DNA from: Caldivirga sp.
GTDB lineage: Archaea; Thermoproteota; Thermoprotei; Thermoproteales; Thermocladiaceae
Reading direction: 5' to 3'
Assembly: GCF_023256255.1 (NCBI RefSeq)
Contig: NZ_JAGDXD010000020.1
Span: 1-43,954, forward strand
Length of the DNA: 43,954 nt
Part shown: in pieces, positions 7,454-9,427 of the stretch
Numbering within the stretch: the stretch's first letter is position 1
Layout of the letters: every line of letters starts with the position of its first letter
Position numbers and translations under genes: made by a program
Notes under the pieces: model-generated
The model's database searches: none
What the model saw: the letters and a program-made list of their open reading frames with translations, nothing else
What the model was told of the DNA's origin: nothing

Positions 7454-7570
7454 CTCTGACCTCCTCTCCACCCTGTAGGGGTGGTTCATTTGGTTCCTGT
7501 CCTTGCTCGTGGTGTCATTGAGTGAGTGGTCTGTAGTTTGGCTTGGAGTATCTCTTCTTCAAGCCTAGCC
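7454..7570 (-). ncRNA. omega-RNA (reRNA) scaffold end of the TnpB element
   Basis: TnpB proteins use an RNA from the 3' end of their element, ending in a hairpin and a GGAGG-type tail directly before the guide. Here the minus strand shows CCACCC-5nt-GGGTGG (7468-7484) followed by GAGAGGAGGTCAGAG, ending near 7454. The same 13-base tail recurs at 21022-21034. The guide would be the flanking sequence beginning at about 7453 (ATTTCAGGATACAC). The 5' limit of the RNA is not visible and may lie inside tnpB. Confidence 0.6.
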
Positions 7571-8698
7571 TCACGGTTGCCTTGAGCCTATACGTTGATG
7601 TAGGAGCGCCCATTTTATTGGTATTTCGTCTCTGTTTGCCTTGAGTCCGCATTTTGGGCATTGCATTACCCTGCCTGGTAATTGCGTCAATTCGTTACCA
7701 CAAACTGGGCATTTTGTGCTTGGCAATCTTTTGAACTCGTAAGGTACACCGTACCAGGCTAGTTGATTAGTTAAGAGATATATGAATCTCCTCAGGTAGA
7801 GCATATAGGCCTTAGCCAATCCGTTGGGTAGCTTCTCCTCCATTAACTCGCGCCTAGACTCTTCAAGCACATCATCAATAATAACCATGGCTCCGTATTT
7901 CAAAGCCTTCTGAGCCAGTTTATGGACCAGCTTTTGAGTATAATCCCTCAGGTAGGCATATAGCCTACACCTAGTGGCCTTAATCTCCCTCCATAGCTTT
8001 CTACCGTATGGTGTCTTATGAAAGCCAAGCCTCCTTAAGGTGCCGTATTTATGCTCAAGCATAGTCACGTGGTTGTAGAGCGTTTCAATGTAACCTAGGT
8101 TAGGCCTCTCCCTACCCATTGAGCTTATTTTGCCATCTACTAGAGCCCAAGCTATGCCGTGCCTCCACGAGTTAACGTCAATAACCAACCTATAGTTGCT
8201 CGGCTTAATTGGCTCAACTTCACGCTCGAAAGTTATGGCTATGTATAGATGCCCATCATCAACCCAGGCCCTAGCCAACTTAGGCTTGCCACTCTCATTA
8301 AGCCTATCACGGATATACCCAACCTCACTGGGGGTGAGGCTGATAATAATGGCTCTCCTCTTAATAACCCACCTAAGCCTCAGAATGTTTTCAGTTAAAT
8401 CAATAAATACGCCTTGACCCATATCACGTTCATTAGTGAGCCTCACGCCGACATTGAATATTGCATGGACTTTAGCCAGCCATTTTTTAGCATTGATAAG
8501 TCTTAACTCATTCTTAAAGTAATCGAATTCATATGCAAACCTTGAGTCTATGTCTATTGACCATATCTCGAATCCCCTAGCCCACAAATTACCTAAAGCA
8601 TCAGCTCTATTAAGCACCCTAACCAACGCACCACGCTCCTCAGTGGTGAATATCCTTAATGGTCTCTTGATTAGCAGTGTTCTATGGGATTTCGTCAT
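7571..8698 (-). CDS. tnpB: TnpB (OrfB), RNA-guided nuclease of IS200/IS605 elements
   Basis: The 375-aa product has the usual TnpB length and layout: an N-terminal basic/beta region, RuvC-I LVIDVNSWRHG, RuvC-II MVIIDDVLEES, a CPVCG...CPKCG zinc finger near the C terminus, then RuvC-III NRDEIPIKWAL. The RuvC-II acidic residue is Asp where most TnpBs have Glu, and the usual DRDxNAA is changed to NRDEIPI, though the key Asp remains. ATG 8698 (MTKSHRTLL) is preferred to TTG 8713; it overlaps the stop of the upstream small ORF by 17 bases, suggesting coupled translation. The protein is intact, so it may still be active or be repurposed. Confidence 0.88.
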   Translation of the reverse strand: MTKSHRTLLIKRPLRIFTTEERGALVRVLNRADALGNLWARGFEIWSIDIDSRFAYEFDYFKNELRLINAKKWLAKVHAIFNVGVRLTNERDMGQGVFIDLTENILRLRWVIKRRAIIISLTPSEVGYIRDRLNESGKPKLARAWVDDGHLYIAITFEREVEPIKPSNYRLVIDVNSWRHGIAWALVDGKISSMGRERPNLGYIETLYNHVTMLEHKYGTLRRLGFHKTPYGRKLWREIKATRCRLYAYLRDYTQKLVHKLAQKALKYGAMVIIDDVLEESRRELMEEKLPNGLAKAYMLYLRRFIYLLTNQLAWYGVPYEFKRLPSTKCPVCGNELTQLPGRVMQCPKCGLKANRDEIPIKWALLHQRIGSRQP

Positions 8699-8843
8699 CT
8701 GGAACCACCACAATCACAATAACCCTCCTACCAACCAACTCCTTCAACACTGGCTTATTCCCAACCCATATCTTGAAGTACTCGTAGCCGTGCCTCCTCT
8801 GGTCAAGCATCACGGTACCAAAGACCGCATACACCCTAGCCAC
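8682..8843 (-). CDS. small ORF upstream of and overlapping tnpB, 53 aa
   Basis: From GTG 8843 (VARVYAVFGTVMLDQRRHGY) the frame stays open for 53 codons and ends in GRRVIVIVVVPDDEIP, with its TAG inside the tnpB start region. The alternating hydrophobic C-terminal strand followed by an acidic turn resembles small beta-strand proteins, but I do not recognise the family. A TATA-like CAAATAAG (minus strand) at about 8862-8869 lies ~25 bases upstream. The overlap suggests one transcript with tnpB and a linked job, for example as a partner or regulator. Confidence 0.5.
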   Translation of the reverse strand: MARVYAVFGTVMLDQRRHGYEYFKIWVGNKPVLKELVGRRVIVIVVVPDDEIP

Positions 8844-8918
8844 AATAGAGGTCAGCTAAACTCTTATTTGAATTTTTTGCTAATAAAAAGTTTATAAATT
8901 AGCAAACCATTACCCCTA

Positions 8919-9066
8919 GTGAGCCAGCGGTGGGAGTGTATGCCGTGAACCCGCTGGTGCCCAGCCCCGTGGGCACGTGATAAGATGACACCCCGAGGAT
9001 GGGGGCAATGCCCGACGAAGGCAGAAGGGTGAAGAGAGTCACAGGGATGCGGGGAAACGGGGCATA
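8919..9066 (+). ncRNA. GC-rich structured RNA candidate in the TnpB element
   Basis: This segment is clearly richer in G+C than its surroundings, as structured RNAs are in AT-leaning hyperthermophiles. Stems include CCAGCGG/CCGCTGG (8924-8930 with 8951-8957), GTGCCCA/TGGGCAC (8957-8963 with 8970-8976), CCCC/GGGG (8991-8994 with 9001-9004) and GTGA/TCAC near 9029-9042. A strong plus-strand TATA TTTATAAA (8891-8898) predicts initiation at about 8919-8921, right where structure begins. I see no tRNA, SRP or RNase P signature and no C/D boxes. It may instead be the left-end secondary structure of the element, read in either direction. Confidence 0.45.
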
Positions 9067-9291
9067 TTCTACCGTTCTCATCAACTATAACCTCACCGTC
9101 GGCTGAAATAACCATGGGCCTAGGTCCATTAGGGCCTTGAGGCTGTTGAACCAGCACTGAATAATTAGGTAAGATACTTAGTGGAACCTTACTTGTAAGG
9201 GAAAACTTGCTTACTAAGTCACCTGCAATAAAACCACCGACTGCACCAAGGCCCAGTGCCCCAGTAGTTTTATGACATCCCTCCTATCCAT
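9067..9291 (-). pseudogene. 5' part of a Tat-signal exported protein gene, frameshifted and truncated
   Basis: From ATG 9291 the product begins MDRRDVIKLLG, a twin-arginine motif, and after a one-base shift in a G run (about 9258-9261) continues as the hydrophobic ALGLGAVGGFIAGDLVSKF, a good Tat signal. The mature part reads on through SILPNYSVLVQQPQGPNG and VISADGEVIVDENGR, then stops at the TnpB element near 9066. The missing 3' half may be the remnant at 7151-7453. A TATA-like TTTTAAATAAT lies at about 9302-9312. The function of the protein is unknown; Tat export suggests a folded or cofactor-bearing protein. Confidence 0.7.
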
Positions 9292-9427
9292 TACATGGTT
9301 ATTATTTAAAATCTAAAAACTCTTCTTCGTGTTAATCCGCAACACAGGTGAGGAGCCTTACCCTTGAGCAAGTAGGAGTCAGCTCTGGCGATCGGTTTAT
9401 AACCCCCTTCTTCAATTAGGCTTAATA

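What the first reader, a model, noticed from the sequence alone, without database searches (positions are those of the whole stretch)
8885..9066. GC-rich hairpin RNA candidate under its own strong promoter
Inside the TnpB element, opposite to tnpB, TTTATAAA is followed at the right distance by ~148 nt of GC-rich, hairpin-dense sequence with no coding sense. Known TnpB RNAs come from the other end of the element and the other strand. It could be a new RNA class: an antisense regulator, a second guide-like RNA, or a passenger RNA.
Basis: partly seen in the sequence, partly recalled or inferred. Interest (0 to 1): 0.62.

Follow-up and report, generated by a model that had tools for sequence, protein, structure and literature searches.

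The report
TnpB guide RNA encoded backwards
In a heat-loving archaeon and its relatives, the RNA that probably guides a TnpB DNA-targeting enzyme is encoded on the opposite strand and at the opposite end of the enzyme gene from the TnpB guide RNAs known so far, under its own promoter, which suggests a separately made and possibly shareable guide in these ancestors of CRISPR enzymes.

Summary
A TATA box (8891-8898) is followed by a conserved RNA gene, about 8918-9064 (+), divergent from tnpB (7571-8713, -). Folding energy is no better than chance; related copies decide the matter. About 30 copies lie in 14 of 81 genomes of the class, all in one order (Caldivirga, Vulcanisaeta, Thermoproteaceae). 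Intact elements place the RNA 5' of, and divergent from, tnpB. Hairpin P1 keeps its pairing while its sequence is replaced. The loop of hairpin P2 pairs with the last bases before the conserved end GGGGCA, with compensating changes; that pseudoknot and its register (-101..-95 with -8..-2) match the ISDra2 omegaRNA. At nine comparable insertion sites, homology to the empty site starts at the first base after GGGGCA, the guide position. More distant TnpBs of the same order carry an RNA-like segment in the usual place (3' side, same strand). The inverted TnpBs form one clade. Best reading: this is the TnpB guide RNA (omegaRNA), encoded backwards under its own promoter; not an antisense RNA and not merely a DNA hairpin. 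Transcription, TnpB binding, TAM and nuclease activity are untested or unresolved; the RuvC-II Glu is Asp. I found no report of this layout.

The parts
8876..8906 (.). Inverted repeat TTTGCTAAT...ATTAGCAAA enclosing the TATA box; candidate divergent promoter/operator region between the RNA and upORF-tnpB
   Evidence: related elements (L029, L034, L043, L048, L049) have back-to-back TATA-like boxes in one palindrome here, although most palindrome scores only reach the shuffled range (L043, L034 and L029 exceed it)
8891..8898 (+). TTTATAAA TATA box of the RNA; palindromic, so it could also serve the - strand (tnpB side)
8918..9064 (+). omegaRNA-like scaffold; 5' end inferred from TATA spacing, 3' end ..GGGGAAACGGGGCA
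8923..8958 (+). P1 hairpin (8923-8930 / 8951-8958), sequence replaced but pairing kept between copies
8959..8974 (+). P2 hairpin (8959-8962 / 8971-8974), counterpart of ISDra2 omegaRNA stem 1; C-G flipped to G-C in three copies of alignment A1
8964..8970 (+). Pseudoknot 5' strand GCCCCGT in the P2 loop (-101 to -95 from the guide)
8991..9004 (+). P3 hairpin CCCC(GAGGAT)GGGG
9057..9063 (+). Pseudoknot 3' strand ACGGGGC (-8 to -2 from the guide)
9065..9082 (+). Predicted guide (first bases of the flank): TATTCTACCGTTCTCATC; length assumed from ISDra2 (16 nt) and rounded up
   Evidence: junction; no other site in the genome with fewer than 3 mismatches
7571..8713 (-). tnpB, 380 aa, divergent lineage; C-terminal TNB zinc finger; RuvC-like residues D179, D280, D362
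8682..8843 (-). Conserved small ORF (53 aa) upstream of and overlapping tnpB; no family match
7532..7570 (.). Last element-like sequence past the tnpB stop shared with L156/L011
7454..7531 (.). CTCTGAC plus terminal hairpin (CCACCCTGTAGGGGTGG, 7468-7484), similar to the end next to a second TnpB fragment in L156; true left end of the element unresolved
9065..9297 (-). 5' part of an interrupted Tat-signal-like gene (apparent frameshift near its start); ORFs of 566-572 aa in G010, G034, G035

Best explanation
The segment is the guide RNA (omegaRNA/reRNA) of the adjacent TnpB, encoded divergently. An archaeal promoter on the 5' side of tnpB drives, on the opposite strand, a scaffold of about 147 nt that runs to the end of the element and continues into the flank, giving a 3' guide that matches the DNA beside the insertion. 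TnpB would bind the P2 hairpin and pseudoknot and, with the guide, recognise the vacated target. Because the RNA is not cut from the tnpB mRNA it can be made separately, and RNA copies without tnpB could be served in trans. Shown here by sequence: conservation, structure, 3' boundary, linkage to one TnpB clade. Inferred: transcription, binding, guiding and biological role.
For: Homologues in 10 of 41 relatives by DNA and 14 of 81 genomes of the class by covariance model, all in one order. Intact elements place the RNA divergent at the tnpB 5' side. P1 covariation. Pseudoknot with compensating variants: L035 CGGCCCC/GGGGCCG, L038 GTCCCG/CGGGAC, L031 and L033 GCCCCGC/GCGGGGC. Register -101..-95 with -8..-2 against -106..-102 with -6..-2 in ISDra2 (PMC10097598). 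At nine sites compared with empty relatives, homology starts at the first base after GGGGCA. Divergent-RNA TnpBs form one clade, 100/100. Model pLDDT 85.3; best folds Cas12f and TnpB, including 8iaz and 8h1j. The tnpB 3' side is not conserved between close relatives. Distant same-order TnpBs carry a GC-rich RNA-like segment on the 3' side and same strand, i.e. the usual layout.
Against: No transcript data. No clear TAM emerges from the bases before the target. The RuvC-II Glu is Asp in the whole clade and its outgroups. Folding energy is ordinary. Left end of the element not settled and no transposase assigned. A G010 element has a weaker RNA match on the tnpB 3' side as well, so a second RNA cannot be excluded everywhere.
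Confidence: 0.82

Rival explanations
1. The conserved segment is only a DNA element end: single-stranded hairpins bound by a transposase, with no functional RNA made.
For: It sits exactly at the element end, and IS200/IS605 ends carry hairpins (established knowledge; an LE-like hairpin is seen on the 5' side of the canonical copies).
Against: TATA box and P1 are kept or lost together; long conserved unpaired motifs between stems; pseudoknot in the register of an omegaRNA; no Y1 transposase found in G003, G028 and G039, which carry copies.
Confidence: 0.08
2. The canonical omegaRNA is at the tnpB 3' side and the divergent RNA is a second, accessory RNA of the same TnpB.
For: Terminal hairpin with a GAGGTCAG-type end left of tnpB in the window, L156 and L160; 3'-side RNA match in G010.
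Against: Sequence past the stop is not conserved between window, L155 and L157; in L156 that end lies next to a different TnpB fragment; an unfiltered scan found no strong 3'-side match in the other elements.
Confidence: 0.1
3. Same RNA and layout, but the TnpB-like protein no longer cuts and acts as an RNA-guided DNA binder or repressor (works like TldR). This concerns the role of the complex and overlaps with the best explanation.
For: RuvC-II Glu to Asp throughout the clade; copies lacking tnpB keep promoter and scaffold.
Against: All three RuvC positions remain acidic; guides come from the flank as for nucleases; no second near-match of the guide in the own genome.
Confidence: 0.15
4. Antisense regulator of tnpB.
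For: Opposite strand to tnpB.
Against: It points away from tnpB and does not overlap the ORF; the most conserved part is the far 3' end.
Confidence: 0.02

Closest known systems
ISDra2 TnpB omegaRNA (IS200/IS605)
   Same: Scaffold over 100 nt, hairpin whose loop pairs with the bases just before a 3' guide, guide taken from the flank at the element end, TnpB partner
   Different: There the RNA lies at the 3' end of tnpB on the same strand, and a TnpB is reported to process its own mRNA into omegaRNA (PMC10278001, title and abstract); here divergent, at the 5' side, with its own promoter
TnpB elements with 3'-side RNA in the same order (L086-L104, L116-L120)
   Same: GC-rich RNA-like segment with TATA-like box ending in a G run, then variable flank
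   Different: Same strand and downstream of tnpB; about 30% identical TnpB; scaffold not matched by model R1
IS607 TnpB with RAGATH-18-derived reRNA
   Same: Stable pairing of a TnpB with a structured reRNA
   Different: TnpB lies upstream of the reRNA (PMC11061315 abstract)
IscB omegaRNA
   Same: RNA on the 5' side of the nuclease gene (my own knowledge)
   Different: Same strand as the gene, 5' guide, Cas9-related protein (my own knowledge)

Membership tests
TnpB omegaRNA | Consistently next to a TnpB gene | tested here: met
   copies without tnpB also exist
TnpB omegaRNA | 3' scaffold end at the element boundary, then a variable guide from the flank | tested here: met
TnpB omegaRNA | Pseudoknot between a 5' hairpin loop and the bases just before the guide | tested here: met
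   compensating changes in a few copies only
TnpB omegaRNA | Located 3' of tnpB on the same strand | tested here: not met
   This is the layout of known members rather than a functional requirement; hence I call it a variant that works like an omegaRNA, not a standard member
TnpB omegaRNA | TAM next to the target | tested here: inconclusive
   no clear motif at nine sites; empty sites come from other species
TnpB omegaRNA | Transcribed, bound by TnpB, guides DNA cleavage | not testable with these tools
   No RNA or protein data
TnpB nuclease | TnpB/Cas12 fold with TNB zinc finger | tested here: met
   NCBIfam guided_TnpB 44 bits, below its cut-off of 100
TnpB nuclease | RuvC catalytic triad D-E-D | tested here: not met
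   D179, D280, D362: Asp at the RuvC-II position; activity therefore open
IS200/IS605 element | Defined left and right ends and Y1 TnpA in cis or trans | tested here: inconclusive
   No tnpA in the element; Y1 found in 3 of 8 genomes tested; left end unresolved

The most novel reading that the evidence does not exclude
A TnpB lineage with a fully uncoupled guide-RNA gene: divergently transcribed, spreading also as stand-alone RNA units, used in trans by TnpBs with a D-D-D RuvC site, possibly for binding or repression rather than cutting.
Probability: 0.15. Interest if true: 0.8.

Novelty: new variant of a known kind. Interest (0 to 1): 0.62.

Why it matters
Known TnpB guide RNAs overlap or follow tnpB on the same strand, so making the guide is tied to the enzyme's mRNA. 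A divergent guide gene with its own promoter breaks that link, as CRISPR-Cas12 systems did with separate RNA genes, and would let stand-alone guide RNAs share one TnpB. Annotation that looks only downstream of tnpB would miss such RNAs.

Tried and rejected
Rfam: no match above gathering in this segment, only chance-level hits with the permissive search. tRNA or tmRNA: none here. RNase P, SRP or split tRNA: considered from memory, no Rfam support. Antisense RNA: rejected on geometry. A 3'-side RNA in this clade: scanned without filters, only the G010 locus stands out. TAM read from the right flank on the - strand: no conserved base (flanks, by eye). Left flank of the window as the rest of the interrupted gene: alignments do not exceed shuffled controls. 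A fixed deletion of about 170 nt on insertion: seen at three sites but others give about 77 to 500 nt, so not claimed. Several literature phrasings for an inverted or divergent TnpB RNA found nothing; the library lacks most subscription papers.

Full report
Observation. The window holds TTTATAAA at 8891-8898 followed by GC-rich sequence to 9064 on the strand opposite tnpB. The single sequence folds no better than its shuffles, so energy alone does not support an RNA. Rfam and ARAGORN find nothing there.

Homologues. A DNA search of 41 genomes found copies in 10, up to seven per genome. A covariance model of the 3' 108 positions (from alignment A2) found about 30 copies in 14 of 81 genomes of the class, all in the window's order. 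Named records show Caldivirga sp. MU80, Vulcanisaeta sp. JCM 16159 and a Thermoproteaceae bin among the carriers.

Anatomy. Copies share a TATA-like box, hairpin P1, hairpin P2, hairpin P3, a conserved stretch (GATGAAGRATGATTAGGGTCAC) and the end GCGGGGAACGGGGCA. P1 has different sequence but conserved pairing; each of its first eight pairs occurs as at least three standard pair types (the stem was picked as the best one next to P2 in each copy, so one search is the control). Against dinucleotide shuffles the combined P is about 1e-17, treating copies as independent, which overstates it because copies are related. The P2 loop (GCCCCGT) pairs with the terminal ACGGGGC, with compensating variants in L031, L033, L035 and L038. 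Truncated copies lose P1 and the TATA box together.

Fit to omegaRNA. In the ISDra2 structure a pseudoknot joins -6..-2 to -106..-102 in the loop of stem 1, with a 116-nt scaffold and a 3' guide (PMC10097598). Here -8..-2 joins -101..-95, in the loop of P2. This is a comparison of register, not a fitted model.

Boundary and guide. Where the same site without the insertion could be found in other species, homology starts at the first base after GGGGCA at all nine clear sites, including the window's own gene; three further sites were unclear. The flanks differ between copies. The bases before the target in the empty sites show no firm motif. The window's 18-base guide region has no other site in the genome with fewer than three mismatches.

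Layout. Intact elements have tnpB on the other strand, 5' end towards the RNA. Five related elements carry back-to-back TATA-like boxes in a palindrome between the two genes; only some exceed shuffled palindromes. In distant TnpBs of the same order (about 30% identity; some 40 matches in G028) a GC-rich segment with a TATA-like box follows tnpB on the same strand and ends in a G run before variable flank. The divergent-layout TnpBs form one clade with full support, and so do the sampled canonical ones; which layout is ancestral is not shown, as the tree is unrooted.

Protein. The 380-aa protein has the TNB zinc finger and a confident model (pLDDT 85.3) whose best folds are Cas12f and TnpB. It is far from the standard TnpB models. 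D179 and D362 are kept; the RuvC-II position is Asp (D280) in the clade and sampled outgroups. Nuclease activity is therefore open.

Left end. Window, L156 and L160 share CTGACCTCC plus a hairpin at the tnpB 3' side; in L156 a fragment of another TnpB lies there, so this may be a nested element. Occupied loci lack roughly 77 to 500 nt of host DNA relative to empty relatives, which could be later one-sided decay. G010 has a weaker RNA copy on the tnpB 3' side. Y1 transposase is absent from several carriers, and serine recombinases occur in all eight genomes tested, so the mobilising enzyme is not assigned.

Literature. Searches of the open PMC library found no divergent or antisense guide RNA for TnpB. 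Absence there is weak evidence.

Verdict. A guide RNA that works like a TnpB omegaRNA, in a layout not seen in known members: a new variant of a known kind, with function inferred.

Noticed in passing
L029 1501-1608 (-) and 2990-3101 (+) (G010:C1:1587184-1588784): One element has an RNA-family match at both ends of a broken tnpB, both ending GCGGGGCA at host DNA.
   Followed up: partly
L155, L156, L158, L159, L160, L161, L162 against L175-L187: Occupied sites lack about 77 to 500 nt of host sequence compared with empty relatives; at three of them about 167-174 nt.
   Followed up: partly
window 8682-8843 (-): A 53-aa ORF upstream of tnpB is conserved (81% in L155 and L156, 46% in L168, 35% in L157) with no family match.
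   Followed up: partly
L086-L104 (G028): One genome carries about 40 matches to a related TnpB family with 3'-side RNA, yet no Y1 transposase was found there.
   Followed up: partly
L005, L013/L027, L016: Copies of the RNA with no tnpB found in the stretch held; L005 and L027 keep both TATA box and P1.
   Followed up: partly
L015 and L012, flank just after the RNA end: About 100 nt is inverted between the apparently orthologous sites in two species.
   Followed up: no
L213 (Acidilobaceae bin RSWP17): A 47% identical tnpB fragment at a contig start, outside the order where the RNA was found; could be binning error or transfer.
   Followed up: no
window 9065-9297 (-): Interrupted Tat-signal-like gene with an apparent frameshift; long intact ORFs in relatives.
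   Followed up: partly
L107-L112: Another TnpB group in Thermoproteaceae has a conserved coding stretch upstream; the place of its RNA was not determined.
   Followed up: no
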